DNA of 37,789 nt from Sorangiineae bacterium NIC37A_2 (GTDB lineage: Bacteria; Myxococcota_A; Polyangia; Polyangiales; Polyangiaceae), in assembly GCA_002085155.1 (NCBI GenBank), contig NASX01000046.1, positions 1 through 37,789 of the forward strand, read 5' to 3'. Position numbers and translations under genes: made by a program. Of the stretch, positions 14 through 26,994 are shown in pieces; positions within the stretch are counted from its first letter, which is position 1; every line of letters starts with the position of its first letter. The notes under the pieces are model-generated. The model had not been told where the DNA came from. It saw only the letters and a program-made list of their open reading frames with translations, and did no database searches.

Positions 14-3000
14 TTTCTCAGCTGCCTGCGCGGCAGTGAACGGCGCCTACGAGCTCGTAAAGGGTACTTGACATTTCTCAGCTGCCTGCGCGGCAGTGAA
101 CTACACGGTCGACCTAGCGACTCACACTGCTCTTTTCTCAGCTGCCTGCGCGGCAGTGAACTGGATGCCCGACCAGCGCATCTCGCTCACTGCTTTCTCA
201 GCTGCCTGCGCGGCAGTGAACCGTGCCGGAGCACGTGCGGACCATCGAGTACTTTTCTCAGCTGCCTGCGCGGCAGTGAACATTTGCGGCCGATGTCGAG
301 GGCTGCGTGTTCCATTTCTCAGCTGCCTGCGCGGCAGTGAACATCAGCGACGGAGCGGACAGCTACACGCTCACCTTTCTCAGCTGCCTGCGCGGCAGTG
401 AACCCTCCTCGAGCTCATCCGCGACGGTTCGGCTTTTTCTCAGCTGCCTGCGCGGCAGTGAACGATCAGGTGTAGAGCTGACCTCTGAGCATCCGTTTCT
501 CAGCTGCCTGCGCGGCAGTGAACTCGCGCCGAACATCGGAGCGGCCGACGGAGCTTTTCTCAGCTGCCTGCGCGGCAGTGAACAGCTTGACGGTGTTCCT
601 GTGAGGCATGCTCGCTTTCTCAGCTGCCTGCGCGGCAGTGAACACGTCAACGCCATCCCAGCCCATGTAGTCCATTTTCTCAGCTGCCTGCGCGGCAGTG
701 AACCGGCACGGCATGATCTCCAACCGCGAGCTCGATTTCTCAGCTGCCTGCGCGGCAGTGAACGGCTCACGGTGACGGATCTGCGCGACCCCGAATTTCT
801 CAGCTGCCTGCGCGGCAGTGAACCGAATGTGTTCTCGAATGTTCTCGCCTGCTAATTTCTCAGCTGCCTGCGCGGCAGTGAACAGTTTGAGTTGGCGCTC
901 CTTGAGCGCGGAATTTTTCTCAGCTGCCTGCGCGGCAGTGAACGAGGCGTGGGCTCGGGAGGTGCCTGGCATCGTTTTCTCAGCTGCCTGCGCGGCAGTG
1001 AACTTGTCCCCACATTTTCACCGTGCCGTCTTCGTTTTCTCAGCTGCCTGCGCGGCAGTGAACTCCGCGCTCTCCGGCTCGAACGGTGCGGCGAATTTCT
1101 CAGCTGCCTGCGCGGCAGTGAACAGTGCCTCCTTCGGAGGCGGTAAATTTATTTGTTTCTCAGCTGCCTGCGCGGCAGTGAACGCGATGACGAGGACGGG
1201 GCGGCCCCAGACGCTTTTCTCAGCTGCCTGCGCGGCAGTGAACAGCTCCGGGTGGAGCTCGGCGAAAGCCTCCCATTTCTCAGCTGCCTGCGCGGCAGTG
1301 AACGAGATCTCGGCGAACGGCGTCAAATTCAAGCTTTTCTCAGCTGCCTGCGCGGCAGTGAACGAGAGACACGACAGGGATCCAGACCCGCCCTCTTTCT
1401 CAGCTGCCTGCGCGGCAGTGAACTCCCATGCGGCGGCCCCTGCGGCGGCCCCTGCTTTCTCAGCTGCCTGCGCGGCAGTGAACCGCGATGAGCTCGGTGC
1501 CTATGGCCGCATGCGTTTCTCAGCTGCCTGCGCGGCAGTGAACTCGGGATCAATTGTGTAGGTCATGGCTTGGTCTTTTCTCAGCTGCCTGCGCGGCAGT
1601 GAACCCGACTGAGAGGGTTAGGCCGGTGAGGGTGAGTTTCTCAGCTGCCTGCGCGGCAGTGAACTCGGGGTGTTGGTCGCCCCCGCGCAGCCATTATTTC
1701 TCAGCTGCCTGCGCGGCAGTGAACATGCTCGCACGAAAGCCCCTCCGCCCGCGCTTTTTCTCAGCTGCCTGCGCGGCAGTGAACGGTACTCCTCGCCAGA
1801 GCGCGAGACCCGTAGCTTTCTCAGCTGCCTGCGCGGCAGTGAACGTCGTGCCCAAACGCCGATGAACTTTTGCCTTTTTCTCAGCTGCCTGCGCGGCAGT
1901 GAACACCGTCTCGGGAATGGACGAGGAGTCGCCCAATTTCTCAGCTGCCTGCGCGGCAGTGAACGCGCACCGGCATCCCAACGGAGGTGGATGGGTTTTC
2001 TCAGCTGCCTGCGCGGCAGTGAACGTGTGTCGATGTAATCGAGTGTATCGGGTCTTTTTCTCAGCTGCCTGCGCGGCAGTGAACGCGCCGGAACGCTGCG
2101 GCGCGCGAGTTGTTTATTTCTCAGCTGCCTGCGCGGCAGTGAACCTCTGCGGTCGCTACCGGCGCTCCTTCAAGCGTTTCTCAGCTGCCTGCGCGGCAGT
2201 GAACGATGACCGCCTATGAGATCGCCGACGAGCTCGTTTCTCAGCTGCCTGCGCGGCAGTGAACACGCCGCTCGAGCAAACAGCGAGGCCTCCCGTTTTC
2301 TCAGCTGCCTGCGCGGCAGTGAACAAACCGACGCCTGAGCCGTATCAAGACCTTTTTTTCTCAGCTGCCTGCGCGGCAGTGAACTCGAGAGCGAGATCCG
2401 TACAGTGTGCCCGATATTTCTCAGCTGCCTGCGCGGCAGTGAACGAATCGCTCGTCCGCCAGGTCGCACTCGACCATTTCTCAGCTGCCTGCGCGGCAGT
2501 GAACACAGTGTCGTTCAGCGCACTCTGTCAGCTTGATTTCTCAGCTGCCTGCGCGGCAGTGAACCGGGGGCGGTCTCGGCCTCGAGGGATTGGGTTTTTC
2601 TCAGCTGCCTGCGCGGCAGTGAACCAACGACTTCCCGACGCGCGATCCGATGTACTTTTCTCAGCTGCCTGCGCGGCAGTGAACCGTCCCCAAGGCGGGG
2701 CATATGCGGACTATGATTTCTCAGCTGCCTGCGCGGCAGTGAACCAGGCGTCCACCGTCACATCGGGGGCGGCGTTTTTCTCAGCTGCCTGCGCGGCAGT
2801 GAACGACGGCATGGCCGAAGCCGTCCGGCTGGATGATTTCTCAGCTGCCTGCGCGGCAGTGAACGAGGGTCAGTGCCCCGATAGTCTGGAGGAGTTTTTC
2901 TCAGCTGCCTGCGCGGCAGTGAACGGAGCTCGCCGACGAGCTCGGTGAGGGGCTCTTTTCTCAGCTGCCTGCGCGGCAGTGAACTGCGCGCGATTCCTGT

Positions 3001-3344
3001 CACTGACGCGACGGTGTTTCTCAGCTGCCTGCGCGGCAGTGAACGAGGTCGACCGTCCCGGCCAGCGCGTGCGACTTTTCTCAGCTGCCTGCGCGGCAGT
3101 GAACGCTGATGCGACCACCGCAACGGTGCCGTTGGATTTCTCAGCTGCCTGCGCGGCAGTGAACGACGCGCGTCCATGACGAGCCGTGGTGCGCATTTTC
3201 TCAGCTGCCTGCGCGGCAGTGAACTGCGAATCCGCGAGCTCGATTCGTTCGCTTTCTTTCTCAGCTGCCTGCGCGGCAGTGAACCCATTGCGACTCCGGC
3301 CGTCCTCACGCTCCTCTTTCTCAGCTGCCTGCGCGGCAGTGAAC
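14..3344 (-). CRISPR. Type I-F CRISPR array, 56 repeats and 55 complete spacers
   Basis: A 28-bp repeat (plus strand begins TTTCTCAGCTGCC and ends GGCAGTGAAC) occurs at 14, 74, 134, 194, 254, 315, 376, then every 60 bp from 436 to 1516, and every 60 bp from 1577 to 3317. All 56 copies look identical. Spacers are 32 nt, except 33 nt at 282-314, 343-375 and 1544-1576. On the minus strand the repeat starts GTTCACTGCC and ends GAGAAA, with an internal GCTGCC/GGCAGC-type stem. This is the orientation of known I-F crRNA repeats, such as that of Pseudomonas aeruginosa. Transcription is therefore leftward, the leader is on the right beside cas6f, and the newest spacers should be near 3285-3316. No duplicated spacer was noticed by eye. 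Frames open across the array are artefacts of the 60-bp period. Confidence 0.99.
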
Positions 3345-3475: not shown

Positions 3476-4036
3476 TCAGAACCAGGGTAGCGTCGCGCTC
3501 TGACTCAGCCCGTATGCGTTGAAAGGCCCAACTGCCGGGCCCAACGCGGGACGGTGCTCGATAAAGAGCGGGAATCTATGTCCCGTGCTCTTACTGCCTA
3601 TGTTCAAGAAGGGCAGCTTCAGGGTTTCACGTGCCGTGTCCGGAATGCGAGAGCGAGCTTCCTCGTCGGTCCAACCGTGACGCCGCATTTGACGGCGGCG
3701 AACGCGATCCGGGTTGCTTTTCGCTTGCACACGTCTCACCTGCCGGTACTCGACGTCAACGGGGACCGCCGACACACCTTTCACATGAATATGGTCCCTC
3801 ATTCCCATAAGCCACTCTTGTGCCATGAGGAGAGCCAGATCAGATTCATTGCCGTGTAGTCGCAGCAACCGACCCAGTGTCGGCTTCTTCTCATCAACCT
3901 GGGGAAAGCTGACGCCAATCCCGGTCATTTGAAGGAGCGCGAGGTGGCGGTGAAACTTCGCGAAGAGGGCGTCCATCAACTGATGCGCCGGAAACTCCGG
4001 GTCCGGGAGAATCTCGATGTCGAGGTATCGGTCCAT
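3476..4036 (-). CDS. cas6f: Cas6f (Csy4), crRNA-processing endoribonuclease
   Basis: The 186-aa product matches the usual Cas6f length (187 aa in P. aeruginosa). The family cuts pre-crRNA at the 3' base of each repeat hairpin and stays bound to the 3' handle in the Csy complex. The catalytic residues fall at the numbers known from the Pseudomonas enzyme: H29 in AKFHRH, and S148 and S150 in the GSKSTG segment followed by HRFPLFIEH. An arginine-rich helix (about 108-119, DRVRRRQMRR) corresponds to the major-groove RNA-binding helix. The ATG lies 2 nt after the cas7f stop with a G-rich Shine-Dalgarno, so translation is probably coupled. It is the last cas gene before the array, the normal I-F order. 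Confidence 0.97.
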   Translation of the reverse strand: MDRYLDIEILPDPEFPAHQLMDALFAKFHRHLALLQMTGIGVSFPQVDEKKPTLGRLLRLHGNESDLALLMAQEWLMGMRDHIHVKGVSAVPVDVEYRQVRRVQAKSNPDRVRRRQMRRHGWTDEEARSRIPDTARETLKLPFLNIGSKSTGHRFPLFIEHRPALGPAVGPFNAYGLSQSATLPWF

Positions 4037-4038
4037 CC

Positions 4039-5073
4039 CTATTCCCCCTTTTCGGCCTCGCCGAACACGCCCCCTCGAATCAGGTTTGCCATAACGTAGT
4101 GCTGCTGCTCAGCCGCCGGCACCTTGTCCTTGAGGACCCACCCATCCAGCAGGGAGTAAAAGTCGACTCCTTGCTTTGGCTGGCGGTACGCCTTGCCCTG
4201 CGATGTGACCGATCCGTAAGGCTCCACGGCAATCGGCCCGAGGTCGGCTGAGTCAGGATACCAGGTGTCAATCGTACGAAGCGCGTTGCCAACCTTTTGC
4301 GAGTGAATCGCGGCCACGTCCTTGACGGAGTAGAGCGTCTTGCTCTTTTGACCCTTCTTTTCGCTACCCTTGTCGAGGATGAGCTCCTGCGAAGGAAAGA
4401 CTTCTTGCCCCTGACCCACCCGGACATGGGCGATCACTTCGAGGAGCACATGTCCATGACCTGCCAGCCCCTCAGCGATAACATCAGCTAACGCAGCAAC
4501 ATCCGCATTCTTCTCGAAAGCCCGAAGATTCAAGCTAAGCGCGTCAAATTTCCAGGAGCGATCTGCTGCGCCACCCTTGAGTCGATTCACGACAACCTCA
4601 ATGGCCTCCGCGCCGATGCGGTTTCGCCACAAGAAGCGCGCGTTGGCAATGTTCGCGGCGTAGCGTTCCGCCAAAGCGCCGAACCCATGCTCAGTCACAT
4701 ACTTAGAGACAGTTTGCCGTAGCTTCGCCTGATAGTCCGCGTCGTTGCAGGCGGACGGTGTGCCCGCGCCTCCTAGCACACGAAGGGTAAAGTAAACCCG
4801 CAGAGTATCAGCCTCGGAAGGCAACGTAGCCACGTCGACGCGCTGCAAGTTAGGGGATTGGATCGAGGCATCGAGTTTCGCAGGATCTTGCTCTTTGGCC
4901 TTGAGGCGATTCGAGATGGTGCCGCGGACCGACTTTTCGCGCACGGTAACAGGGGCCCAAGACGCAGAAGTTGAGCGCTGAGCCCAAGCGCCTGCGCTCA
5001 TGAGCGCGTCAGAGGGATCGATCTTTCGCTCGAAAGCGAGCACGGAGGCGGTCTTGATTTCACTTTTTGCCAT
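4039..5073 (-). CDS. cas7f: Cas7f (Csy3), Csy complex backbone subunit
   Basis: The 344-aa protein matches Csy3 in length and in its N-terminus ([20 protein letters not shown]). In the I-F surveillance complex six copies of Cas7f line the crRNA spacer and present it for target pairing. [22 protein letters not shown]-like opening is characteristic of the family, and an [19 protein letters not shown] segment lies in the middle of the protein. It starts 4 nt after the cas5f stop, with an AAGGA Shine-Dalgarno inside the end of cas5f, and is followed by cas6f after 2 nt. No frameshift or truncation is apparent. The assignment rests on family resemblance, size and position. Confidence 0.96.
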
Positions 5074-5077
5074 GGGT

Positions 5078-6046
5078 CTATTGTCCTTCTGCTGGAGAGC
5101 TCAATTGGGAGAAGTAGGGAGTTGTGGTGCGGTAGAGGCCTTCCTCGGGCTCGACCGAGTAAGTCCAAAGGATCTGCCGAAGATCTTGGATGCGGTGTGG
5201 ACTCTTCCACTCGCCGACGGTGTAGATGCCCTCGACGAACCGGAATGGCGTGACGCGGTCGCGAGCATTTTTAACGGTACCTGCCGGATAAGCCTCCGAG
5301 ATGGCGTGGAAGCCCGTGGAGATGGGCACAATCCAGCCGGGCTTGCGTCGCACTCGCCACTCACCAGCTTCACCCGAGCTCGGAGGATCGATGTTCAGGC
5401 TAGAAAGATCGAGCAGCGCGTCGAGCATCGTCGCGCTCGGCTCCTTCTTCATGAGTTCGCGATGGCGCTCCTCGAGCAACCGCTCACGGCTCACCAGGGC
5501 AAACCCTGGTAGCAGGCGCCGTCGCAAGCGCCGCATCATCTTGCTCTCTTCATCTTCCGAACCAGGCCAAAGGTGGAGTTCTGCGGTCACCGGGACTCGC
5601 GCATTCACCGGCGGAATCACACTGCCCCCGGCAATACGCATCGAAGCCGCAATCTCTCCGATGCGATGGGCTAGCTCTTCGGGATGGTGCCCCGAGTATA
5701 GTGCTGGACCTGAGACTCCGACGATCAGGCTCACATCGAGATGCACTCGTCCTTCTTCGACGAGAGCAGGAGGTTTGCCGTCGCTACCAAAGGGATTGCG
5801 CGAAAGGTGGAAGACATGGGTTCGTTTTCCTGCGGGCTGCGAAGCCTGCGCTTCGAACTTGTGACAGACAATCCCTACGCCTTCCAAGCTCAAGCCCAGC
5901 TCGGGCTGAACGGCGCGATGCAAGGCATGCACGAAGCCTAAAAATGCGCTTGGGGACGGGAAGCCCCAAAGCATCGGGCTCGAGATTGCGTTCGCGTTTT
6001 GAATGTTCAGGTGCGACAGCACCAGCACTGCCTCGGGCTCAATCAC
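5078..6046 (-). CDS. cas5f: Cas5f (Csy2), Csy complex subunit
   Basis: The 322-aa protein begins [20 protein letters not shown] and continues [21 protein letters not shown], a typical Csy2 N-terminus (RAMP-like fold, Pseudomonas protein about 327 aa). In I-F complexes Cas5f pairs with Cas8f at the crRNA 5' handle and takes part in target DNA recognition. Its start overlaps the end of cas8f by 8 bp, which suggests translational coupling and fixed stoichiometry. It appears complete. The family is divergent and has no catalytic residues, so the call rests on the N-terminal motif, length and operon position. Confidence 0.95.
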
Positions 6047-7349
6047 GGCTGTCCTCCAAGCTGTTCTCGAACGTGTTCAGTGTGCGAGCGAAATCCCCTT
6101 GCCATTGGCGATGCTCGTCGTCACTCATGGGTAGTTTCCCCTTTCCCCTTTTCAACTCCGAGTTGAACCAATCGGCAAAACGGCGACTAACCATGCGCGG
6201 CCAATCCCCATCGTGCTCGGCAGCAAAGGCCGCGTCTTGCTCGGTTCGCCCTGGATCGAGCCAATGTTTCTCCGCTTCGTGCAAAGTGCAGTTTGGATCT
6301 GCGCTCCACCCAGGATCTAGGGCCTGAATTGACGCCGCATACTCAACGGCTTCGTCACAAATTTCGTCAACGAGTTTGGCCCGGTATTGGCGAATAGCGA
6401 GATTGTTGTGCTCCGTCTTCTCGAGAAACTCGACCAGAGTGCGAACGAGCTCGCGCACCTGTTTGCTTCGTCCGAAGCGACTTCCAAATACGGAGTCACA
6501 ATTCAGCGGTGGCTTGGTCTCCACTGCCTCCCAATTCGGTGGAAGCGAGGGAAGGAGCCAATTCTCGCCATAGCGTTCGCTATTCAGTTGGCTGATATTC
6601 TGAGGTTTGGTTCCGCCAAATTTCTGAATCGCGAGATTCGGGTACTCACGATAGCCGTGACCAAACCCTTCGCCCTTGTTGCGTGCTTCGCGTGCGCTCT
6701 TGGCCGCTTCGCCGTAGCGATCTTCTCGCATGCGCTTCTGCGCCAAGTGCACGAGCGAAGTCGGAAAGAGTGGCCCGAGCAGGTGATAGGACCCATCAGT
6801 GAGCGGAAAGTACACCTGCTTTGCAAGGGTGTGGGATGCCGCTTGGGCACCACCTTCTGCAACCGAGGCGAAGGAATCGCGCCAGACTCTTGCCTCTGAT
6901 TCGTCGCTGCTCAATGCCGACAGCAATTCGGGCGCTTCCGAGAGGACCATCTCAAGCACAGATTTTCCGCGCCATTCGAGGCTGAGAAACTTGTAGACGT
7001 CGAGCGCCGCGGCATTGCCGACGACGTCGTCCGGCAAGCTCGCCGGATCAACGCTATGCGTGCCAAGTAGGCCTTCTGCCGCGGGCTTCGCCGGCCGCGC
7101 GCGAAGGTTGGTTCCCCTCGCATCCGGGTGAAGCGGTTTCAGAATGTGGGATGCCAGTTGGATTTGGCCCACTCGACGAGCTGCGTCGGCCAACCAAGCT
7201 CGTGGCTCGTAGGACCGCTCCAGTTCCTCACGCTTCTCAGATTCGTCGGGCTTGAGCTTGTCGAGCTTGGCCTGAAGACGTTCACGGATGAACGCTTCAA
7301 TGACCTCTCGTAACGAGCTCGGTTCGCTAGATTCTCCTGGTTCCCTCAT
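6039..7349 (-). CDS. cas8f: Cas8f (Csy1), large subunit of the Csy complex
   Basis: With the start at 7349 the product is 436 aa, close to the 434 aa of Pseudomonas Csy1. An upstream in-frame ATG at 7376 would add 9 residues. The 7349 ATG is preferred because GAGGTG lies just upstream. Cas8f binds the crRNA 5' handle with Cas5f and recognises the protospacer-adjacent motif. Visible features fit the family: an N-terminal helical stretch rich in Glu/Lys/Arg (about 11-50), then SHILKPLHPDARGTNL, and LLGTHSVD. Spacing to cas2-3 upstream is 42 nt, the largest gap in the operon. It overlaps cas5f by 8 bp. Confidence 0.95.
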   Translation of the reverse strand: MREPGESSEPSSLREVIEAFIRERLQAKLDKLKPDESEKREELERSYEPRAWLADAARRVGQIQLASHILKPLHPDARGTNLRARPAKPAAEGLLGTHSVDPASLPDDVVGNAAALDVYKFLSLEWRGKSVLEMVLSEAPELLSALSSDESEARVWRDSFASVAEGGAQAASHTLAKQVYFPLTDGSYHLLGPLFPTSLVHLAQKRMREDRYGEAAKSAREARNKGEGFGHGYREYPNLAIQKFGGTKPQNISQLNSERYGENWLLPSLPPNWEAVETKPPLNCDSVFGSRFGRSKQVRELVRTLVEFLEKTEHNNLAIRQYRAKLVDEICDEAVEYAASIQALDPGWSADPNCTLHEAEKHWLDPGRTEQDAAFAAEHDGDWPRMVSRRFADWFNSELKRGKGKLPMSDDEHRQWQGDFARTLNTFENSLEDSRD

Positions 7350-7391
7350 AACACCTCGTTCAACAACCAGACGCATAAGTTAAGCGCCTAC

Positions 7392-10300
7392 CTACTTGCA
7401 CTTCTTGAATCCTAGGGCTGGGTGATACTCCCAGCCGTGATCGTGGGGCTTCAACGCCAGGTATCCGTAGCGCTCAGCGCACGCCCGGGGGGCCATGTCG
7501 GTGCGCTCGCTCAGCTTCAGCAGCTCGTCTCGGTAGTCTGAGGGCCCCCAGGAGCGCACAGACGACGACGCGGGCAAGCTCACGCGGTGGAGTAACCTGT
7601 CATCTGGCCGAGGGCGCCAGCGGCCTTCAACGCGCTCAAAGAGCCGAATGTCCTCGGCGTCCTCATCTACCGGCAGCAGGCCGTACTCGCTTTCCTCGCC
7701 CTCTGACTTTCTGAACGGGTGGGCCTTTTGCAGCATGCCGGACAGAGGGGCACGCGTCGTCCACCATTGCGCAGCATGGAACCGGTTTGCTCCGGCCCGT
7801 TCGCCGAGTAGCTTTTTCCGAATAGCCGCGTGCTCGAGGTCGACAAGATTCTCGGAAGGCGCGAGTGCTAGCCGCTCCTGGATTCTGGGCGCGGCGTCAA
7901 GCGGACTCCACTGTTCGGGGAGGAGCACGGTTCGGAGATCGTGGCTCTTAAGAAGAACCTCTCCCTCAAATCCAGGTCTATGGAACGCGGGCTCCCCAGG
8001 CGAACTCGACACCGCCTTAATGTTCTCCGCGAGGACCATGATGTTCGGTGTGGAGCACGGGCCAGGCCGGTGACGGCGAATGCGCCCGGCTAGCTGAATG
8101 ATTGAACGCATGGACGATGGTTCTACGATCGCCCAGTCGTAGTCATGATCGCGCCCTACCTCGGCGATGGGTGAGGCGAGCACGACGAAAAGGTGATGCG
8201 TCGCGTCGGTGACTGCTAGGGCCTGCTGAATGTGCTGCAAACTGAAGACTTCAAGTTCCACGTGTCTCTTGAGCGTCACATCGAGCAGGTTCTCGGTGGC
8301 GGACCGCATCAAGAGGGGGTGTTTTGCGTGGTAGACGCAGAGGTGCAGCGTGTAGCCTTCGGGCATCTGGGAGCTAAAAAGACCTCGCGCTAAGAGGATA
8401 ATGGGCTCGATATTGGCCAGCCGAACAAGACCAAAGCTAACGTTCTTTTCCGTGACGGGGTCCGTTGTGTGATGCAACGAATGAAGCCGCACCAAGTGCT
8501 CAGGCAGCACGCTACCGAGCGCCGCACAAACGTCCTCCCGACTTGGATTGCCACCTTTATTTGAAGACTGTCGTAAGTTGGGCGCAATCAATTCGACCTT
8601 TCGGCGCTCAGGTTCCTTTCGCAATTGCGCCAGACGTTTTTCAACGAACTCCGCGTGACGCGAACGGAATGTGTCGGCGTTTTGATGGATCGAATGGTCG
8701 ACGCGAAATTCGTCGAACCACGCGCAAGGGATAGCGATGGCCCGCCCCACCTCGCCACGGTTCTTCTGAAAGGTTTCTCGCCCTGTTCGGTACGCGTCGA
8801 ACAGCGCCTCAATCAGGCCAGGTGGCAACGTGGCGGACGAAAGCACGACCCGACTCCCGAGGAGCCCAGCCCAGTGTACGAGTCGACTGAGCGCCGGAAG
8901 GTCCGCAACGTCAAAGTCGTCAGGCTCATCGAGGACCAGGTCGGAGCTGAGGAGCCGCAAGATAGGCGCAATCTGATGCCCGCCGCGTAGGCTTTCGGTC
9001 GCGGGCATGATGTGATCAATTGTGCAAACGAGTACTGGTGCTTGAAGCAACTTGTTGGCGCCCGAGTTGGTCCCCAACCACCGTTTCAGCGGGCCATCCT
9101 CCAAGTTTCCCTCGAAGTGCACATGGAAGCCTTCGGCTAGAAGTTCCTCTGCCGATTCGCTCCCATAGCTCTTCGATCCATCAGGTGATGGACTATTCTC
9201 CTTCGAAAGCGCAAAGAGCTCTTTGACCGCCGCGCCTCCGACCAAGACCGCCAGATCGTCGTCTCCCAAGCCAAGGCGTTCTCGGTAGGCTTCGCCAGTT
9301 TGGAGGGTCAGCGTCCGTAGCCCGAGCGCTACCGTAAAACGTGCGCCGCGCCGCGCGTCGGACAGGCCGTACAAGATGCGACCATTGGCGAGCGTTTTCC
9401 CACAGCCTGTGGACGCCATGTTCACACCGAAAAAACCATGATCTGCGGCTCGCTCGCGAAGCGACGACGCTAAGTCGAACGCCTTGTCTTGCCAGCGGAA
9501 ACGCTCGTCCGCGGTACGCTTTTGGAACGCTTTGCAGCGGGCAATTCGCGGAAGATCTCGCTCGATGCGCGGCAATGCTCGGGTGACTCGACGAGCGTGA
9601 GAGGCGACACCAGCAAGATGCTCATCCAGGCGCTGTTTTAGCTGGTTGGTCTTGCGGTCGGTGTTTGCAAAGAGCGGATACCCAGTATCCCCATAGCGCG
9701 GCTCACTATCGCAGCTCGAATAGTGATGGTCAGCCAGCATGAGAGCCAACCGAGAAATGTGCATGACGTAGCTGTCGTCGAGAAACGATGAGGCTCGTTC
9801 GATGAAACCAGGCCGTTCAAGCATTTTTTGGGCGCAGGCCGCCGCGCGCCGGCTCCAATCTCGGCTATCGAATGGGGTTCCGTAGGGAAAGTCCCAACAA
9901 GCAGCCCGATCTTTAGGTTCGGAGTCGGATCTCGCCCCGTTCCAGTCTGGCAGCAGAGGGAACAGAAGACTCTTGAGCGTCCCGACGTTGTTCTTGTTTG
10001 GGTCCCGCGAAACTGGGAGTCGATGGTGGCTGACGATGAGCCAGCCAATGGCCTGAGCGAGCGGGCCCAGATTCCTATCGCTGAACGGGCCCATGGGTGC
10101 CGGTTTGGCGTTGTCCGCTTTGAGTCGCAGAAGCGCCTCCGCACCCAGAAGAGCGTCACCTTGCGCGAGCCTATTCAGCCAATCACGGTCGCTATCCTTG
10201 CCAACAAAGGCCTCGAAAAGGCGGAGCGAAACCCATTCGTGCCGATACGCATCGGCAATCGGCACCTTTGATGTTAGCTTTTGCTGAAAGGCTGCGCTCG

Positions 10301-10682
10301 CTTTGCCAAAGTCGTGGAATAGTGAGCCCAACATCGCTAGAAGCTGGATATCCTCCAGGCTTTGCCAGCTATTTTCGTCCTTCGACCGCAGCACGTCAGT
10401 GCCAGTGCTATTGGTGGGTACCGTCCCCTGGTCGTTGAAACGACTCGCGTCGCCCACAATCCAAGCCAGCTCACTGTAGTCGTGACCTCGGATCCAATGG
10501 CAGGCAACCGAAGTGTTCTTCCGAGCTGTCTTCTTGAGCAGCTTGCGGAGCGTGTCGAGACCTGCCTGAGTGATGGACGTCTGCCAAGTTCGGTCGCCGC
10601 GCCGCTCAGCAAATTGGTCGAGGATCCGCCGAGTTTCGGAGAGAGCACGCTTCTCGCACTGGGAAACGATAAGAACGTTCAT
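7392..10682 (-). CDS. cas2-3: Cas2-3 fusion: Cas2 domain plus HD nuclease and helicase
   Basis: The 1096-aa protein is the Cas2-Cas3 fusion diagnostic of type I-F. Residues 1-90 (MNVLIVSQCEKRALSETRRI) are the Cas2-like adaptation domain. The Cas3 part has an HD nuclease motif (LFHDFGK, H123/D124), Walker A STGCGKT near 424-430, a DEPD box near 585, SSATLP near 615, and motif VI QLAGRIRRHR near 863-872. The family unwinds and degrades the displaced target strand after recruitment by the Csy complex, and joins Cas1 for spacer acquisition. The start at 10682 overlaps the cas1 stop as ATGA and matches the expected Cas2 N-terminus. A longer frame starting at 10769 was rejected because its extra 29 residues lie wholly inside cas1. 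All nuclease and helicase motifs look intact. Confidence 0.97.
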   Translation of the reverse strand: MNVLIVSQCEKRALSETRRILDQFAERRGDRTWQTSITQAGLDTLRKLLKKTARKNTSVACHWIRGHDYSELAWIVGDASRFNDQGTVPTNSTGTDVLRSKDENSWQSLEDIQLLAMLGSLFHDFGKASAAFQQKLTSKVPIADAYRHEWVSLRLFEAFVGKDSDRDWLNRLAQGDALLGAEALLRLKADNAKPAPMGPFSDRNLGPLAQAIGWLIVSHHRLPVSRDPNKNNVGTLKSLLFPLLPDWNGARSDSEPKDRAACWDFPYGTPFDSRDWSRRAAACAQKMLERPGFIERASSFLDDSYVMHISRLALMLADHHYSSCDSEPRYGDTGYPLFANTDRKTNQLKQRLDEHLAGVASHARRVTRALPRIERDLPRIARCKAFQKRTADERFRWQDKAFDLASSLRERAADHGFFGVNMASTGCGKTLANGRILYGLSDARRGARFTVALGLRTLTLQTGEAYRERLGLGDDDLAVLVGGAAVKELFALSKENSPSPDGSKSYGSESAEELLAEGFHVHFEGNLEDGPLKRWLGTNSGANKLLQAPVLVCTIDHIMPATESLRGGHQIAPILRLLSSDLVLDEPDDFDVADLPALSRLVHWAGLLGSRVVLSSATLPPGLIEALFDAYRTGRETFQKNRGEVGRAIAIPCAWFDEFRVDHSIHQNADTFRSRHAEFVEKRLAQLRKEPERRKVELIAPNLRQSSNKGGNPSREDVCAALGSVLPEHLVRLHSLHHTTDPVTEKNVSFGLVRLANIEPIILLARGLFSSQMPEGYTLHLCVYHAKHPLLMRSATENLLDVTLKRHVELEVFSLQHIQQALAVTDATHHLFVVLASPIAEVGRDHDYDWAIVEPSSMRSIIQLAGRIRRHRPGPCSTPNIMVLAENIKAVSSSPGEPAFHRPGFEGEVLLKSHDLRTVLLPEQWSPLDAAPRIQERLALAPSENLVDLEHAAIRKKLLGERAGANRFHAAQWWTTRAPLSGMLQKAHPFRKSEGEESEYGLLPVDEDAEDIRLFERVEGRWRPRPDDRLLHRVSLPASSSVRSWGPSDYRDELLKLSERTDMAPRACAERYGYLALKPHDHGWEYHPALGFKKCK

Positions 10683-11653
10683 GCTTTCGAACCCACCCCG
10701 ATCGCGATCTCCTTGAGAGTATCGATCATGAAGTCGAGCGCTTCGCTCCGCGTCAGGTTGTCCAAACAAGCAACGCGAAATTCCTGCTCGCTGTCCCCTC
10801 TCGCGGCAGAAATGAAGGCCTGGGGCAGAACGAGCGCATCCTTAATAAGGTCTGCGACGTCAAAGACGAGGCCGCCACGCCTGGTCTTGCCATGCATAAC
10901 GGCTAGGCCGTGCGGTAGACCGAGAACCCACGTTGCTGTAGCGGCAAGTCCATAGGCCAGGTAGTTTCCGTGATCCAGAAAGCTGTTTGCGGGATCTCCA
11001 CCCGCGCCTTGTCGCGCTCGCGAGAAATCTCCATACTTGGTTGCTCTCGCCGCGATCTTGTACAGACTCTTAGTGAGACGGGCTTCCTCGGTGAGAAGAA
11101 AGGTATTGTCGGGCGCATCATCCGTCGCTCGAGCAGACTCGGCGAGAAGCCGTTCCAGAGCCTCGGCCGACACCCCGAACCCAGAATCGCGAAAGGCGCG
11201 AAACTTGGTCCAGCGCTCAAAGATTTGTTCAAGCCGCGCGTGTTGAAAACGGCGAGCAGCGTCAAGACGAAGGGCGTCCGTGAACCAGAAGCGAACCCAG
11301 TGCTGAAGCAGATCCGTAGGCCGATACTCGCTTTGCGGCACAGACCATAAGACATCGAAATCGACCTCACCGGCGCTGAACAGGGGAGTCCCTCCTCCGC
11401 CCGCGAATCCTACAAGCACACCAGCTTTTGCGAACTCGCGCATCGCCGCTTGCGTTACGGACGTGCCGGTACCGAACAAGACAGCGGTGGTGTTGGCGAT
11501 AGGTATGTTCCAATAGAGAGATTTTTGCCCCTCCTCGGTCACGTATTCGACGCGCCCCCCGTTCACTAGGACTCGGCAGTGCTGCAAGTAATACAGATTC
11601 GCCCTCTTTGAGTGAAGAATCGTCTTGAGGTCAGAAGGAGAAAGATCCTTCAT
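10679..11653 (-). CDS. cas1: Cas1, type I-F spacer integrase
   Basis: Starting at 11653 the product is 324 aa, the normal I-F Cas1 length. The metal-binding residues land on the Pseudomonas Cas1 numbers: E190 (LLTEEARLTK), H254 (AVMHGK), D265 and D268 (FDVADL). That agreement supports this start over an upstream frame beginning at 11758. A purine-rich GGCGGGGGC precedes the ATG. Cas1 with Cas2-3 inserts new spacers at the leader end of the array. The stop overlaps the cas2-3 start (ATGA). It is the first cas gene of the operon, so the operon promoter should lie in 11654-11927. The G-rich loop AGGGGTPLF (about 85-92) is intact. Confidence 0.97.
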   Translation of the reverse strand: MKDLSPSDLKTILHSKRANLYYLQHCRVLVNGGRVEYVTEEGQKSLYWNIPIANTTAVLFGTGTSVTQAAMREFAKAGVLVGFAGGGGTPLFSAGEVDFDVLWSVPQSEYRPTDLLQHWVRFWFTDALRLDAARRFQHARLEQIFERWTKFRAFRDSGFGVSAEALERLLAESARATDDAPDNTFLLTEEARLTKSLYKIAARATKYGDFSRARQGAGGDPANSFLDHGNYLAYGLAATATWVLGLPHGLAVMHGKTRRGGLVFDVADLIKDALVLPQAFISAARGDSEQEFRVACLDNLTRSEALDFMIDTLKEIAIGVGSKA

Positions 11654-11927
11654 TGCCCCCGCCTTTGGACTGTTAGTGATGTGTGGCAGAAAATGACAGA
11701 GAGGACTGCTCCTCTCACGAGTTCCACTCTCGCTCTCGTCCTCCTCCCCTCGAGACAACCTGGATATGTTACGCGAACTGGCACCCAGACGAAATGCTTA
11801 TTGGTAGCGGGCGGCGGTGTGGTTGTTAGGGAAAAGGCCTGTTCCATGGCCACGGCAGAATCCCACGTCCGGAGACCCCATTCCCTAGACCCTTTGAAGC
11901 CCGCTGAACGCCAGTGCAGCTCCCCGG
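11654..11927 (-). promoter_or_regulatory. Intergenic region upstream of the cas operon
   Basis: These 274 bp separate the WYL regulator from cas1, both leftward, and must contain the cas promoter unless the operon begins at the regulator. It holds a 7-bp inverted repeat at 11699-11716. No clear sigma-70 promoter was identified, and no partial CRISPR repeat or anti-repeat was recognised on inspection. Confidence 0.5.
11699..11716. promoter_or_regulatory. Inverted repeat in the 5' region of cas1
   Basis: GAGAGGA (11699-11705), a 4-nt spacer CTGC, and TCCTCTC (11710-11716) form a perfect 7-bp inverted repeat 46 bp upstream of the cas1 ATG. It could be an operator for the neighbouring WYL regulator or an RNA hairpin in the cas leader. 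It lacks a T tract, so a terminator is less likely. Confidence 0.45.
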
Positions 11928-12878
11928 CTATAGGGGGCTCGGGTGGCTTTGAAGTGCTCCCTGGGCGAGCTGACGGACGAGCTCGGCGACGCGGGGACTC
12001 TCTGCCCGAGCTTCTTGTCCGAGGCCCACGACGAATCGGGCAACGACGATCAAACCACCGCGAGCTGACACCCGGATCTCTCCAGACGGCAAATCCTCAG
12101 CCGTCATTCCCGATGGCAGATTACGCCGCACCCATGATTTGATCGTCGGGCTGACCAAGAATGTGTGCCGCTCCGAGCTCGCGTCGTGAAAGCCGTCAGG
12201 GCTCTCCGCCAGAAAGGCGTCTACCTCGAGCGCCGGACATTCTCGATAACTTTGGGTCTCATCGATCTCAGCTCGCTGAATATCCTCTACCCGAAACCAG
12301 CGAAGGCCTTCGTTTCTGTGGCAGAACGCCGCGAGTCGACACGGGGGTCCCAGCAGCAGTCGGCTCGGTGAAACTGTTCTCGCGGAAAGCTCTCCGCGAC
12401 TTGCCGAGAAGTACCGAATCCGAACCGCGCGCCCGGAGGCAATGGCCTCCTGTATCGTGGGAATCGCCTGTTCTTCCTCCGGGCTCATAGGGAGAGCAAC
12501 GACCCCCGCGTTCAGTCGCGCTGCGCCCTCCGCTGGCAGGCCACGCCCGACTCGCCCCGCTAGTAGCGCTGAAAGGAGTTTGGCCCGTTTTTCGAGCGAA
12601 CTAATACGTAGTGCCGCCTCCAGTAACACCTGCCAATCCTCAGCCTTGAAGAGTACCCCTCCTGGAAACCAGCTCGGGGGGACGGACCAATAGACGTGCG
12701 GATGTTCTTCTTCCCGCTCCAACGGCATCCCGGACCGCTGCAGTTCTTCAAGCACCCTACGAATCCGACGTGGCTCGACCTCCGCTCGTCGGGCCAACTC
12801 CGCCTGTCTCCACGTTCTCTGCTCCACGAACGCTTGGATCACCAGAACCACGGTCTCATAGTTCCCGCGCGCACCCAT
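11928..12878 (-). CDS. WYL-domain transcriptional regulator
   Basis: The 316-aa protein has an N-terminal winged helix-turn-helix (about 10-75, with QAELARRAEVEPRRIRRVLEEL). A WYL-type domain follows (about 150-225): IASGRAVRIRYFSASRGE, then PSRLLLGPPCRLAAFCHRNEGLRWFRVEDI. The name-giving Trp-Tyr-Leu is altered (CRL), but the downstream R..WFRVEDI pattern is kept. The C-terminus resembles WYL C-terminal extensions. Such proteins often regulate phage-defence loci in response to nucleic-acid ligands. It is co-directional with cas1 and 274 bp upstream, so it may control the cas operon; that is inference from position. The ATG at 12878 (MGARGNYETVV) was chosen because the upstream residues do not look like a conserved domain. 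No strong Shine-Dalgarno is visible. Confidence 0.85.
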   Translation of the reverse strand: MGARGNYETVVLVIQAFVEQRTWRQAELARRAEVEPRRIRRVLEELQRSGMPLEREEEHPHVYWSVPPSWFPGGVLFKAEDWQVLLEAALRISSLEKRAKLLSALLAGRVGRGLPAEGAARLNAGVVALPMSPEEEQAIPTIQEAIASGRAVRIRYFSASRGELSARTVSPSRLLLGPPCRLAAFCHRNEGLRWFRVEDIQRAEIDETQSYRECPALEVDAFLAESPDGFHDASSERHTFLVSPTIKSWVRRNLPSGMTAEDLPSGEIRVSARGGLIVVARFVVGLGQEARAESPRVAELVRQLAQGALQSHPSPL

Positions 12879-12970
12879 TTCAGACGACAACCTGCCATGA
12901 ACATGTACGCCGGTCCATGCCCAGCTCAGCAAGCCGGGTCCCAGGCACGCGACACGCACGCCGGACTGAC

Positions 12971-12992
12971 ACGGAGCCGCGGCGCGCTCCGT
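12971..12992 (-). terminator. Hairpin just after the bestrophin stop
   Basis: ACGGAGC (12971-12977) pairs with GCTCCGT (12986-12992) over an 8-nt GC-rich loop. It lies 1 nt beyond the stop of the leftward bestrophin gene. There is no T tract on the minus strand, so it may be an attenuating hairpin or a weak terminator. Confidence 0.4.
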
Positions 12993-12993
12993 T

Positions 12994-13911
12994 TCACGTC
13001 AAGACGCCGCGGGTCGGACGCAGCGGCTCCGGTACGGTCTCATCGCCGAGCATCTCGCGCAGGTTCATTTCGATCGTGCGCGAGATCGCGTCGAGAGGGA
13101 GATCGTTGTCGTCTTCGCCGAACGGATCCTCAATCTCGTCACCGACCGCGTCGAGGCCGAGGAAGGTGTAAGCGATGATGAAGACGGCGATCGGGGTCAA
13201 GAAGTGGAGCGCGTCGATCACGCCGAACGGCAAAATGAAGACGTACATGGCCACCACCTGGTGAATGAGCATCGTGTACGAGTGGGGAATCGGCGTGCTC
13301 TTGATCCGCTCACACCCTCCCTGAATGTCCGTCAACTCTCGACAGAAGCGCATCGCCTCGACGAACGCGTATTCGCTGAAGCCGCCGGGTCGAGCCTCCT
13401 TCTGGAGCGCTCGGCTGAGGTCGAGCACGATCTGGTTTGCAGGGTTCTTCGAGCGCCCGGCGGCCTCGAGAGCTTCCTTGGACAAGTAGGGGGCGAGTTT
13501 GTCGAGTTCAAACTGATCGCGGAGCTGCATGCGGAGCGCATGGACAAATGCGACTTGCGTGTAGATGAGCTCGCGGCGCCTTTCGAAGCGTGCGCTCTCG
13601 AGAAAGACGAGCGTGTGGCGAGCGAGCGAGCGGCTCTCGTTCACGAGCCGTCCCCAGAGCTTCCGACCCTCCCAGTAGCGGTCGTAACTCGCGCTGGTGC
13701 GGAAACCGAGGAAGATACCGAGCGCAACACCGAGCAGCGACATGATGCCGACGGGAACGCTGAATCGATACTCGAAGTACTCCTCGATCACCGTCACGAT
13801 CAAACTCACGACGACGACGAAGAGCAGACGATAACGGACGCGAACGAGCGCACTTCCGCGAAGACTGAACAGAAGGCGCAGCCAGGTCGGTCGACGATCG
13901 AAGGTCAGCAT
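12994..13911 (-). CDS. Bestrophin-family (UPF0187) anion channel
   Basis: The 305-aa protein resembles bacterial bestrophin homologues (RFP-TM/UPF0187). Its start, MLTFDRRPTWLRLLFSLRGS, is followed by a hydrophobic segment (about 29-45) and IMSLLGVALGIFLGFRTSASYDRYWEGRKLWG, the best conserved motif of the family. A further membrane pair lies near 220-260 (YTMLIHQVVAMYVFILPFG and HFLTPIAVFIIAYTF). Near the C-terminus GLDAVGDEIEDPFGEDDNDLPLD matches the conserved acidic DEIEDPFG signature. Bacterial members form pentameric membrane ion channels (cation-selective in one characterised case, so the ion is uncertain). It is leftward, 63 bp downstream of the cNMP-domain gene. No functional link to CRISPR is implied. 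Confidence 0.93.
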   Translation of the reverse strand: MLTFDRRPTWLRLLFSLRGSALVRVRYRLLFVVVVSLIVTVIEEYFEYRFSVPVGIMSLLGVALGIFLGFRTSASYDRYWEGRKLWGRLVNESRSLARHTLVFLESARFERRRELIYTQVAFVHALRMQLRDQFELDKLAPYLSKEALEAAGRSKNPANQIVLDLSRALQKEARPGGFSEYAFVEAMRFCRELTDIQGGCERIKSTPIPHSYTMLIHQVVAMYVFILPFGVIDALHFLTPIAVFIIAYTFLGLDAVGDEIEDPFGEDDNDLPLDAISRTIEMNLREMLGDETVPEPLRPTRGVLT

Positions 13912-23836: not shown

Positions 23837-24016
23837 AGCGCGCTGTGAGCCTTTTCTGCAGTCGCCTGTCAGCGCAGTGTGAGCCCCCTCCTTGGGAGTC
23901 GCCTGTCAGCGCGGTGTGAGCCCTTTTCTTTTTTGGGGTCGCCAGCGCGGTGTGAGCCCCCTCCTTGGGAGTCGCCTGTCAGCGCGGTGTGAGCCCTTTT
24001 CTTTTTTGGGGTCGCC
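23837..24016. repeat. Tandem repeat of five 34-37 bp units, two alternating types
   Basis: Units begin with AGCGC(G/A)GTGTGAG or a variant at 23837, 23871, 23908, 23944 and 23981. Two types alternate: one ends CCTCCTTGGGAGTCGCCTGTC, the other has a pyrimidine run then TTTTTTGGGGTCGCC. As a result 23871-23943 and 23944-24016 are a 73-bp duplication differing at one base. No gene is seen in 23780-24113; this repeat and the adjacent dispersed element fill most of it. Confidence 0.9.
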
Positions 24017-25548: not shown

Positions 25549-26994
25549 TCAGAGCGTGCCGTTCATCGGATCGTAAGCGTCCGCCGCGCTCCCTGTCGAC
25601 TTGCTCGAGGTCTTCTTCGGCGCCTTCGCCGCGGAGGAGGAGACGCTCTTGGCAGCCTTGGTCGTCTTCGCAGCCGCCGTCTCCTTCTTGCCCTTGAGCA
25701 GGTCAGCGACGCGCGACGAAGGCTCAGCGGAAGAGGAAGCTGACGCAGACGAGGAGGGCTCCTCATCCTTCGGCAGCTCAGCGAGCTTCAGGCCCGTCGA
25801 GGGCGAAGGCGCGCTGCTCGAAGGACCGGTCTCAGGGGCTGCGTCGGACGGATACTTACCGTTCACCTTGCTGAGCCAGTTCTTCATGCCCTCGGGAGTA
25901 TCCGTATCGGGGGCAATCGCGCCCGCAGCGTTCACGCTGCCGGAAGAGCTCGCACCGACGCCATTGCGATAAAGGGCGAACATCGCGACGGCCGCTGCGA
26001 GCACTGCCACACCAGCGACGGGCAAGATCTTCTTCTTCGGCTTGGCGAAAGCCTCTTCGTCGTCCGACCCAATCTGAGGCAGGTCGTAAGGAGTGAGCGA
26101 AGGAGGAGCGACGGACGCAGCCGGACGAGCCGGGAGCGAACCGTGAGGAGCCAGCGAGCCGGGACCCATCGAAACCGGAGCCGCGGGAGCCAAAGAAGGT
26201 CCGTCGTTCCGGAGAGGAGGGCGAGCGCTCGGCGCGGCAGGAGCCAAGCTCGGGCCGTCGTTGCGAAGAGGAGGGCGACCACTCGGAGCTGCAGGAGCCA
26301 AAGAAGGTCCATCGTTCCGAAGAGGAGGGCGAGCGCTCGGTGCAGCGGGAGCCAGGCTCGGGCCGTCCGTGCGGAGAGCGGGAGGAGCGCTCGGTGCAGC
26401 GGGGCTGAAGCTCGGAGCCTCAGCGCGCGGAGCGATGCTGCCGGGACCGGGAATCGTAGCGCGGCTCCCAGGCGGAGGAGCGAGTGAGGGGCCATCGGAG
26501 CGAAGCGCAGGACGCTGGCTCACAACGACGCCACCGGGAGCCGAAGGATGAACGCTGACATGTTCGAGGCTGCTCTTGTCCGCCAGCACAGCACTCAGGG
26601 GGAGCCACTCGGTGTAGCCGGCCTGCCAGACGAGCGAGTCGGGATCGAGCGCGCCGAGCCGAAGCGCGTCCTTGAGCTGCTCGTAGGTCATCTGGCGCAC
26701 GTCGCCGGGGCTCACGTTTACCTGATACATCCCGGGCGGAAGGGATGCGACGGAAGTGCCGGCTTGCTCGTCTTCGGCGTCGAGCTCAGCGAGGACGCGC
26801 GCCAAGGGGAGCCAGGACGGGAAGGACGGCTGCCAGATCAACGTCTCGTCGTTGATCTGATCGGCCTCGTAGGCCTCTGCGAGTGCATCGAGGCTGAGGG
26901 ACGTCTGCTGTCCGTTGAGGACGACATGAAACTCTTCTTCTGGGTTCACTTCGAGCCGGCTCATGGTCTGCGAAGCGTTCACCGATACTGTCAT
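25549..26994 (-). CDS. GYF-domain membrane protein with 18-aa Pro-rich repeats
   Basis: The product, 481 aa from the ATG at 26994, has two GYF_2-type modules. The first is EEFHVVLNGQQTSLSLDALAEAYEADQINDETLIWQPSFPSWLPL. The second is MYQVNVSPGDVRQMTYEQLKDALRLGALDPDSLVWQAGYTEWLPL. A linker with about four near-identical 18-aa units (RPPLRNDGPSLAPAAPSA) follows. Then comes one TM helix (ILPVAGVAVLAAAVAMFAL) and a Ser/Lys/Ala-rich C-terminus. GYF modules bind proline-rich peptides, so the protein's own linker could be a ligand; this is inference. The start is uncertain: ATG at 26964 or an upstream start at 27069 are alternatives, and no Shine-Dalgarno decides. It is divergent from the coiled-coil protein gene. 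Confidence 0.82.
   Translation of the reverse strand: MTVSVNASQTMSRLEVNPEEEFHVVLNGQQTSLSLDALAEAYEADQINDETLIWQPSFPSWLPLARVLAELDAEDEQAGTSVASLPPGMYQVNVSPGDVRQMTYEQLKDALRLGALDPDSLVWQAGYTEWLPLSAVLADKSSLEHVSVHPSAPGGVVVSQRPALRSDGPSLAPPPGSRATIPGPGSIAPRAEAPSFSPAAPSAPPALRTDGPSLAPAAPSARPPLRNDGPSLAPAAPSGRPPLRNDGPSLAPAAPSARPPLRNDGPSLAPAAPVSMGPGSLAPHGSLPARPAASVAPPSLTPYDLPQIGSDDEEAFAKPKKKILPVAGVAVLAAAVAMFALYRNGVGASSSGSVNAAGAIAPDTDTPEGMKNWLSKVNGKYPSDAAPETGPSSSAPSPSTGLKLAELPKDEEPSSSASASSSAEPSSRVADLLKGKKETAAAKTTKAAKSVSSSAAKAPKKTSSKSTGSAADAYDPMNGTL
26186..26401. repeat. 54-bp tandem coding repeat in the GYF gene
   Basis: Four units starting at 26186, 26240, 26294 and 26348 repeat every 54 bp, in frame (18 codons), and encode the Pro-rich linker. 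Units differ at a few bases, mainly silent or Ser/Gly and Pro/Ala changes. Such in-frame repeats can expand or contract. Confidence 0.85.

What the first reader, a model, noticed from the sequence alone, without database searches (positions are those of the whole stretch)
11928..12878. WYL regulator beside cas1 as a possible dedicated I-F controller
WYL proteins are known to regulate several defence loci, but a WYL gene co-directional with and upstream of an I-F cas1 is a less familiar arrangement. The WYL motif core is altered (CRL in place of WYL), which might change ligand sensing. The 11654-11927 gap contains an inverted repeat that could be its operator.
Basis: partly seen in the sequence, partly recalled or inferred. 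Interest (0 to 1): 0.6.

Follow-up and report, generated by a model that had tools for sequence, protein, structure and literature searches.

The report
Regulator gene heading CRISPR operons
A gene for a probable DNA-binding sensor sits directly in front of a bacterial CRISPR immune operon, and many of its relatives sit in front of other CRISPR types, so it is most likely a portable control gene for CRISPR of a kind already noted in print rather than a controller special to this one type.

Summary
A 316-residue HTH-WYL protein (11928-12878, minus strand) lies co-directionally 274 bp upstream of cas1 in a complete type I-F operon with a 56-repeat array. The core reads CRL. The inverted repeats of the gap are near chance level.

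'Dedicated I-F controller' is only partly right. The protein belongs to a PafC-like WYL subfamily. Of 41 subfamily loci read, 36 had usable downstream sequence. In 20 of 36, cas genes follow on the same strand (17 directly, 3 after other ORFs): I-G 9, cas6 alone 4, MYXAN 3, I-E 2, I-C 1, I-F 1. In 14 of 36 none follows. Two of two other readable I-F loci of the phylum lack the WYL. 'CRL' follows the subfamily rule (W in 0 of 38, Arg for Tyr in 30 of 38). GC3 places the gene with the cas island.

Most likely it is a transcription factor switching the cas operon on a nucleic-acid-type signal; regulation, ligand and sign are inferred. CRISPR-linked WYL proteins of myxobacteria (2024) and a WYL upstream of I-F in Marinomonas (2021) are in print. 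New member of a known kind.

The parts
11928..12878 (-). WYL-domain regulator, 316 aa: N-terminal winged HTH, WYL (core C180-R181-L182), C-terminal extension
   Evidence: PF13280 E 3.5e-12; start codon by 39 of 39 rows that reach it; profile match to PafC, PafBC and DriD chains
11654..11927 (.). 274-bp gap between WYL stop and cas1 start; possible cas promoter region
   Evidence: sequence; no sigma-70-like promoter found; inverted repeats near chance level
11699..11716 (-). 7-nt-arm hairpin, terminator-like, in the gap
   Evidence: 1 found in 11600-13050, 1.0 expected; 5 of 60 shuffles as good
11830..11845 (.). 16-bp near-palindrome GGAAAAGGCCTGTTCC, weak operator candidate
   Evidence: no second copy in the genome with up to 1 mismatch
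12967..12996 (.). inverted repeat, 11-nt arms (10 of 11 pairs), 8-nt spacer, upstream of the WYL start and overlapping the bestrophin stop; operator or terminator candidate
   Evidence: 2 of 60 shuffles as good on 200 bp, 0.075 on 150 bp; not shared with relatives
10679..11653 (-). cas1 (type I-F)
   Evidence: TIGR03637 E 5.9e-144
7392..10682 (-). cas2-3 fusion (cas3f); ATG at 10682 inferred from the model start, 4-bp overlap with cas1
   Evidence: TIGR02562 from residue 30 of the TTG ORF; PF21384 Cas2 domain
6039..7376 (-). csy1
   Evidence: PF09611 E 1.3e-128
5078..6046 (-). csy2
   Evidence: PF09614 E 6.7e-100
4039..5073 (-). csy3
   Evidence: PF09615 E 5.4e-150
3476..4036 (-). csy4 (cas6f)
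   Evidence: PF09618 E 1.1e-64
14..3344 (-). CRISPR array, 56 repeats of 28 nt and 55 spacers of 32-33 nt; begins at the contig end, may be cut; strand inferred from the repeat and the cas operon

Best explanation
A homodimeric HTH-WYL transcription factor of a PafC/DriD-like subfamily that travels with cas operons, usually as their first gene. Its winged HTH binds DNA at its own promoter and/or the 274-bp cas1 leader. Its WYL domain plus C-terminal extension binds a nucleic-acid-type ligand made during phage attack or DNA damage. Ligand binding switches transcription of the cas operon.

Shown here: domains, place, strand, GC3 of the cas island, repeated linkage of the subfamily to cas operons of several subtypes, and partly conserved arginines of the ligand face. 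Inferred: dimerisation, DNA binding, ligand and sign. I lean slightly to an activator because the nearest solved relatives are activators. The link to I-F is one recruitment by a regulator family that also accompanies other subtypes.
For: 1. Cas genes follow on the same strand in 20 of 36 informative subfamily loci, directly in 17 and after one or two other ORFs in 3 (L045, L050, L095).
2. WYL and cas6 overlap by 4 bp in the four cas6 pairs; in 13 of the other 16 the gap to the first cas gene or cas match is 12-275 bp, as in operons.
3. Control: 0 of 11 non-subfamily WYL hits in the genomes share a contig with a Cas1 hit, against 13 of 39 subfamily loci. Five of the 11 are in genomes without Cas1, so the control is small.
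4. The cas label is clustered on the tree (6 changes; shuffled mean 11.7; 0 of 500 as low); near-copies help this.
5. A case outside the order: L095, WYL ahead of an I-E operon.
6. GC3 0.64 matches the cas genes, not the flank.
7. Profile matches to solved PafC (2.8e-21), PafBC (2.8e-17) and DriD (1.5e-10), which are ssDNA-activated activators (PMC11804915 and PMC12340889, passages).
8. Arg equivalent to PafB R181 in 38 of 38 and to R211 in 37 of 38 rows.
Against: 14 of 36 informative loci have no cas gene downstream, among them the three closest by identity or score (L037, L038, L039, 42-47%). 14 of the 34 subfamily-bearing genomes searched have no Cas1 match at all. By tree path the nearest row is L041, which has only a Cas3-type HD gene next to it; the sister L045 (I-G) is moderately supported (82/93). 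Starred branches force only 3 changes of the cas label.

The dinucleotide signature does not separate cas island from flank for this gene (0.093 against 0.084). I-F does not need the gene. No shared operator was found.

Three of six PafB ssDNA-critical positions differ in the window protein (Y196 to R181, R204 to N189, R214 to D199), so an ssDNA ligand is unsafe. The AlphaFold model is too poor to use (mean pLDDT 46.6).
Confidence: 0.65

Rival explanations
1. One reading: a controller dedicated to I-F, acting through the inverted repeat in the WYL-cas1 gap, with ligand sensing changed by the CRL core.
For: Right place and strand, same GC3 as the cas genes; a 274-bp gap long enough for a promoter.
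Against: Relatives precede four other subtypes; two of two other readable I-F loci of the phylum lack it; a core without W and with Arg for Tyr is general in the subfamily; the gap repeats are near chance level.
Confidence: 0.12
2. A general stress or DNA-damage WYL regulator whose gene only happens to lie beside cas; the cas operon is not its target or is one of many.
For: 14 of 36 informative loci have no cas gene downstream; 14 of 34 genomes have no Cas1 match; the nearest solved relatives regulate DNA-damage genes (PMC11804915 and PMC12340889, passages).
Against: Repeated linkage in 20 of 36 in one orientation, mostly with short gaps; GC3 shared with the cas genes; 0 of 11 other WYL hits share a contig with Cas1.
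Confidence: 0.15
3. A post-transcriptional accessory that binds crRNA or a Cas complex, as WYL1 does for Cas13d, rather than a transcription factor.
For: Four relatives form a two-gene unit with cas6 alone, with 4-bp overlap and dN/dS of 0.44-0.60 for cas6 and 0.22-0.33 for WYL.
Against: The N-terminal HTH region is conserved (Q25, L28, A29, W64 invariant in 29 of 29), which a pure RNA accessory would not need.
Confidence: 0.08

Closest known systems
WYL proteins of myxobacterial CRISPR loci (PMC11237760, mSystems 2024; passages read)
   Same: WYL proteins found in different CRISPR subtypes of myxobacteria and grouped in the similarity network
   Different: In the main text 'I-F' was found only in a reference title and WYL only in one passage and its references; I could not check that its group is this subfamily (supplement not read)
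PafB/PafC and DriD, ssDNA-activated WYL activators (PMC11804915, PMC12340889; passages read)
   Same: Closest solved relatives by profile; HTH, WYL and C-terminal extension; arginines equivalent to PafB R181 and R211 kept
   Different: WYL Tyr replaced by Arg; PafB R204 and R214 positions are Asn and Asp in the window; linked to cas genes rather than DNA-damage genes
BrxR / CapW, defence-island WYL repressors (PMC9122601, PMC9122588; passages read)
   Same: HTH-WYL regulator ahead of a defence operon; the BrxR paper counts CRISPR-Cas as 21 of 210 BrxR-associated systems
   Different: Only a marginal sequence match (CapW E 0.29 for the window protein); the Trp said to be shared by CapW/BrxR-like proteins is missing in 38 of 38 rows here
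sll7009, WYL repressor of a Synechocystis I-D locus (from passages of PMC4012209 and PMC9122601)
   Same: HTH-WYL protein regulating a type I CRISPR locus
   Different: Sequence not compared here; other subtype and phylum
WYL gene upstream of the I-F genes of Marinomonas mediterranea (PMC8523701; section 7 and passages read)
   Same: WYL gene upstream of I-F cas genes
   Different: In what I read the protein is not tested as a regulator; the regulation shown is by PpoS/PpoR; its WYL family was not compared here
WYL gene beside cas1f on a Methylobacter plasmid (L104, NZ_CP091425.1)
   Same: WYL gene adjacent to I-F cas1
   Different: Divergent, and of the CapW/BrxR family (E 6.1e-47 to 7tb5, 3.9e-43 to CapW 7tb6), so a separate recruitment

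Membership tests
WYL domain superfamily (PF13280) | Match above the curated cut-off | tested here: met
   46.6 bits against cut-off 21.8
HTH-WYL-WCX transcription factors | N-terminal winged HTH plus WYL plus C-terminal extension | tested here: met
   By sequence only: profile alignments to PafBC cover positions 12-202 (HTH and WYL), to PafC 110-309 and DriD 89-296 (WYL and extension). The single-protein Pfam HTH hit is below cut-off (TrmB 19.7 of 25.6) and the structure model is too poor to test it
PafBC / DriD ssDNA-sensing WYL activators | Sequence relationship | tested here: met
   PafC 3.6e-13 with the single protein, 2.8e-21 with the profile
PafBC / DriD ssDNA-sensing WYL activators | All six PafB ssDNA-critical residues (R181, Y196, R204, R208, R211, R214) | tested here: not met
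   Window keeps the R181, R208 and R211 equivalents; Y196 is Arg, R204 is Asn, R214 is Asp (mapping by me, by spacing, from the alignment)
PafBC / DriD ssDNA-sensing WYL activators | ssDNA binding and activation of RNA polymerase | not testable with these tools
   Needs biochemistry
BrxR / CapW family | Close sequence relationship | tested here: not met
   CapW E 0.29, BrxR not listed at E up to 1 with the window protein; the Methylobacter WYL scores 6.1e-47 (7tb5) and 3.9e-38 (BrxR)
BrxR / CapW family | Conserved Trp of the WYL core | tested here: not met
   Trp in 0 of 38 subfamily rows
Myxobacterial CRISPR-linked WYL group (PMC11237760) | Sequence group found with several CRISPR subtypes | tested here: inconclusive
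   This subfamily is found with I-F, I-G, I-C, I-E and MYXAN, but identity with the published network group was not tested
Type I-F CRISPR-Cas | cas1f, cas2-3, csy1-4 and 28-nt repeat array | tested here: met
   NCBIfam cut-offs passed for all six; 56 repeats
Dedicated cas regulator | Binds the cas promoter and changes cas transcription | not testable with these tools
   No expression or binding data

The most novel reading that the evidence does not exclude
A branch of ssDNA-type WYL sensors has become a portable switch for adaptive immunity. The same regulator, with a re-tooled ligand pocket (Arg in place of the WYL Tyr, no Trp), is clipped in front of different cas operons (I-F, I-G, I-C, I-E, MYXAN). 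It turns them on when single-stranded nucleic acid appears, for example from phage replication or from Cas3's own DNA shredding, giving positive feedback. Its WYL-cas6 pairs would be a stripped-down version of the same switch.
Probability: 0.2. Interest if true: 0.65.

Novelty: new member of a known kind. Interest (0 to 1): 0.35.

Why it matters
How type I cas operons are induced is known for few systems. A regulator subfamily found ahead of operons of five subtypes would allow one test of whether adaptive immunity in these bacteria is induced by a common intracellular signal. The residue table gives the positions to test. The case also shows that different WYL families (PafC-like here, CapW-like in Methylobacter) were recruited separately beside I-F cas1.

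Tried and rejected
Operator search: inverted repeats upstream of the WYL gene in the 40 loci then held gave no motif that I could see shared. Four other loci had an individual repeat with p of 0.05 or less (L044, L053, L060, L073), all different. The half-site pattern of the 12967-12996 repeat is not enriched in the window (8 matches, the site itself included; 5.1 expected). The 11830-11845 palindrome has no second copy in the genome. No sigma-70-like promoter was found at 11600-13050.

CRISPR-RNA autoregulation (a degenerate repeat, or a spacer aimed at the cas promoter) was rejected for what could be tested. The best repeat-like match in the gap is 16 of 28, below the best match elsewhere in the window outside the array (18 of 28), and no spacer matched window 3370-37789 at 72% or more. 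The whole genome was not searched with spacers.

AlphaFold with two sequences gave pLDDT 46.6; no fold search was run on it. The Cas3-like_C_2 search was useless, ringing in 14 of 14 controls. The dinucleotide signature was inconclusive. The alignment was too divergent to scan viral contigs (error). The plasmid collection holds no close relative (2 weak hits under 30%). The one scan of named genome contigs works from short exact peptide patterns and found one relative (L036), so spread outside the phylum is hardly tested. Four WYL proteins of the own genome were used as tree outgroup, but two came out short (145 and 74 aa) and all four sit on very long branches, so the root is not informative. 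The translations of those four loci at the end are not used.

Rows dropped before counts: L044, L062, L063, L073 and L074 (under 1.5 kb of downstream sequence) from the cas-linkage count; L074 and L066 (fragments) from the residue table; L066 from the start-codon count; L074 from the tree. L095 is not in the tree, the residue table or the operator search. Subtypes of most linked loci rest on tblastn similarity to a few loci scanned with family models (L046, L049, L056, L058, L065, L095 and the window).

Full report
WHAT IS THERE. The window is one contig (C54) of a 5.0-Mb, 150-contig genome. On the minus strand run a type I-F operon and its array: csy4 3476-4036, csy3 4039-5073, csy2 5078-6046, csy1 6039-7376, cas2-3 7392-10682, cas1 10679-11653, and 56 repeats with 55 spacers at 14-3344. 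Upstream of cas1 on the same strand lies the WYL gene. The ORF list gives 11928-12959, but the column of the ATG at 12878 is M or V in 39 of 39 rows that reach it, so 11928-12878 is taken. The start of cas1 is taken as 11653 because the Cas1f model begins at residue 47 of the longer ORF. The gap is therefore 274 bp. A bestrophin gene (12994-13911) lies further upstream on the same strand.

WHICH WYL FAMILY. The protein passes the WYL model. With the single sequence its only significant solved relatives are PafC (3.6e-13) and PafBC (5.1e-12); CapW is at 0.29. With a profile of 29 homologs the order is PafC 2.8e-21, PafBC 2.8e-17, DriD 1.5e-10, BrxR 5.3e-7, CapW about 1e-4. PafBC and DriD are activators triggered by ssDNA (PMC11804915 and PMC12340889, passages). 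CapW and BrxR are repressors of defence operons (PMC9122588 and PMC9122601, passages). Nearness in sequence is a lead to mechanism, not a test of it.

THE ALTERED CORE. In 38 subfamily rows the W of WYL is Trp in none (Ala 17, Pro 7, Ser 4, others; Cys only in the window), the Y is Arg in 30, and the L is Phe in 25. So CRL is this subfamily's version, not an oddity of one gene. [quoted passage not shown] The subfamily has Cys in 34 and His in 38 of 38 at C186-H187. W is also missing in PafC and DriD in the alignments, where the Y is kept. I mapped the PafB residues whose change abolishes ssDNA binding (R181, Y196, R204, R208, R211, R214; singly or in sets; PMC11804915, passages) onto the alignment by spacing. 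R181, R208 and R211 are kept in the window (R167, R193, R196); Y196 is R181, R204 is N189, R214 is D199. D199 occurs in the window alone; 21 of 38 have Arg there. The pocket is still basic but clearly re-tooled.

LINKAGE TO CAS. A search of 144 relatives gave 37 hits of 94 bits or more outside the own genome, plus one split fragment; all other hits were under 50 bits. I read the surroundings of these 38, of L036, of L095 from a phylum-wide search and of the window: 41 loci. Five have under 1.5 kb downstream. In 20 of the remaining 36, cas genes follow downstream on the same strand. In 17 they are the next genes: the I-F window; I-G L043, L054, L056, L057, L058, L059, L066; I-C L046; MYXAN L049, L064, L072; I-E L065; cas6 alone L067-L070. 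In 3 other ORFs stand between: I-G L045 (2.1 kb, with an opposite-strand ORF), I-G L050 (one large gene) and I-E L095 (two ORFs). Sources are; most subtypes are by similarity. Two more loci (L041, L071) have only a Cas3-type HD gene next. Fourteen have no cas gene downstream; one of these, L055, has cas1 7.8 kb upstream. As a control, 0 of 11 other WYL hits in the 34 genomes share a contig with a Cas1 hit, against 13 of 39 subfamily loci; five of the 11 are in genomes without Cas1, and 14 of those 34 genomes have no Cas1 match. On the tree the cas label needs 6 changes against 11.7 in shuffles, so linkage was gained or lost several times. At E 1e-20 the subfamily was found in 21 of 377 genomes of the phylum, 20 of them in the same order.

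I-F IN PARTICULAR. I-F is rare in the phylum: Csy1 in 4 of 377 genomes, the own one included. The other three were read. G006 and G172 show cas1 with no subfamily WYL by tblastn, and G210 is cut before cas1. Of 20 plasmid records with a cas1f relative at E 1e-40 I opened 10. One, Methylobacter, has a WYL gene beside cas1, divergent and of the CapW/BrxR family. One has no annotation, and tblastn with the two WYL proteins found nothing in it. The other eight list no WYL gene within 3.5 kb; the plasmid gene table is incomplete. In Marinomonas a WYL gene upstream of the I-F genes is in print (PMC8523701, section 7). So WYL beside I-F is occasional, and more than one WYL family is involved.

ISLAND MEMBERSHIP. 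GC3 is 0.61-0.68 in the six cas genes, 0.64 in the WYL gene, and 0.73-0.83 in nine flank ORFs starting with the bestrophin. The break falls between WYL and bestrophin. The dinucleotide signature is undecided (0.093 to cas, 0.084 to flank). The bestrophin neighbourhood is not conserved in the five loci read, so the empty site could not be read.

OPERATOR. I saw no inverted repeat shared across the subfamily. The best candidate by anatomy is 12967-12996, with 11-nt arms like those of the BrxR box (11-bp arms, 5-bp spacer; PMC9122601, passage), but it overlaps the bestrophin stop and is only marginally better than shuffles (2 of 60). The gap repeats are near chance level.

HOW IT WORKS. Best reading: a regulator ahead of the cas operon, sensing a nucleic-acid-type ligand; 0.65 for regulation of this operon. 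Sign and ligand are open. Papers holding both WYL and type I-F were sought (6 found; passages read in two, PMC8523701 and PMC8616872; the other four seen in the listing only). None of the listed titles or passages read is a study of a WYL protein controlling an I-F operon, but the library holds open-licence papers only. One search lists CRP-cAMP and GalM as I-F regulators in Pectobacterium (PMC4499141, listing only). The myxobacterial CRISPR survey says WYL proteins occur in different subtypes and group together (PMC11237760, passage), so the general pattern is known. The I-F member, the residue pattern and the gene orders are added here.

Noticed in passing
L067 2999-4683, L068 3628-5297, L069 8735-10410, L070 9517-11138: WYL-cas6 two-gene units with a 4-bp overlap and no other cas match in the stretch read, in four genomes of one genus; three of the four (G106, G134, G139; 93-94% complete) have no Cas1 match in the whole genome and no other Cas6. 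dN/dS of WYL 0.22-0.33, cas6 0.44-0.60.
   Followed up: partly
L050 9068-11545 and L053 7004-9511: An 825-aa protein with RNA polymerase alpha-CTD and sigma-70 region 4 matches (L050; its 835-aa relative in L053 not scanned) follows the WYL gene; in L050 it overlaps WYL by 4 bp and is followed by I-G cas genes.
   Followed up: partly
L037 5800-9006 and L038 11853-14321: A 1068-aa protein without Pfam or PADLOC match (L037) and its relative (822-aa ORF, L038) lie downstream of two of the closest WYL relatives; possible unknown defence gene.
   Followed up: no
L047 4415-13365: WYL gene heads a three-gene stretch: 573 aa without match, a PD-(D/E)XK protein, and a UvrD helicase with PD-(D/E)XK.
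   Followed up: no
L041 8521-9315 and L071 10401-11063: Cas3-type HD domain alone directly downstream of the WYL gene; remnants or stand-alone nucleases.
   Followed up: no
L104 2406-4436 (Methylobacter plasmid): CapW/BrxR-family WYL gene divergent from I-F cas1: a separate recruitment of another WYL family.
   Followed up: yes
G000 contig C113 40340-41185: The own genome has a second, high-scoring cas1 in a 621-aa frame (size of a Cas4-Cas1 fusion, by comparison with L058); the WYL match on that contig lies about 36 kb away.
   Followed up: no
L045 10458-12578: 2.1 kb between the WYL gene and the I-G cas3 in the window's tree sister; it holds an opposite-strand ORF (11430-12086) with a relative downstream of the WYL gene in L044.
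   Followed up: no
window 23870-24015, 26176-26445, 37056-37334: Repeats: two 73-bp units 99% alike, 54-bp units, and an 18-bp-period low-complexity coding repeat.
   Followed up: no
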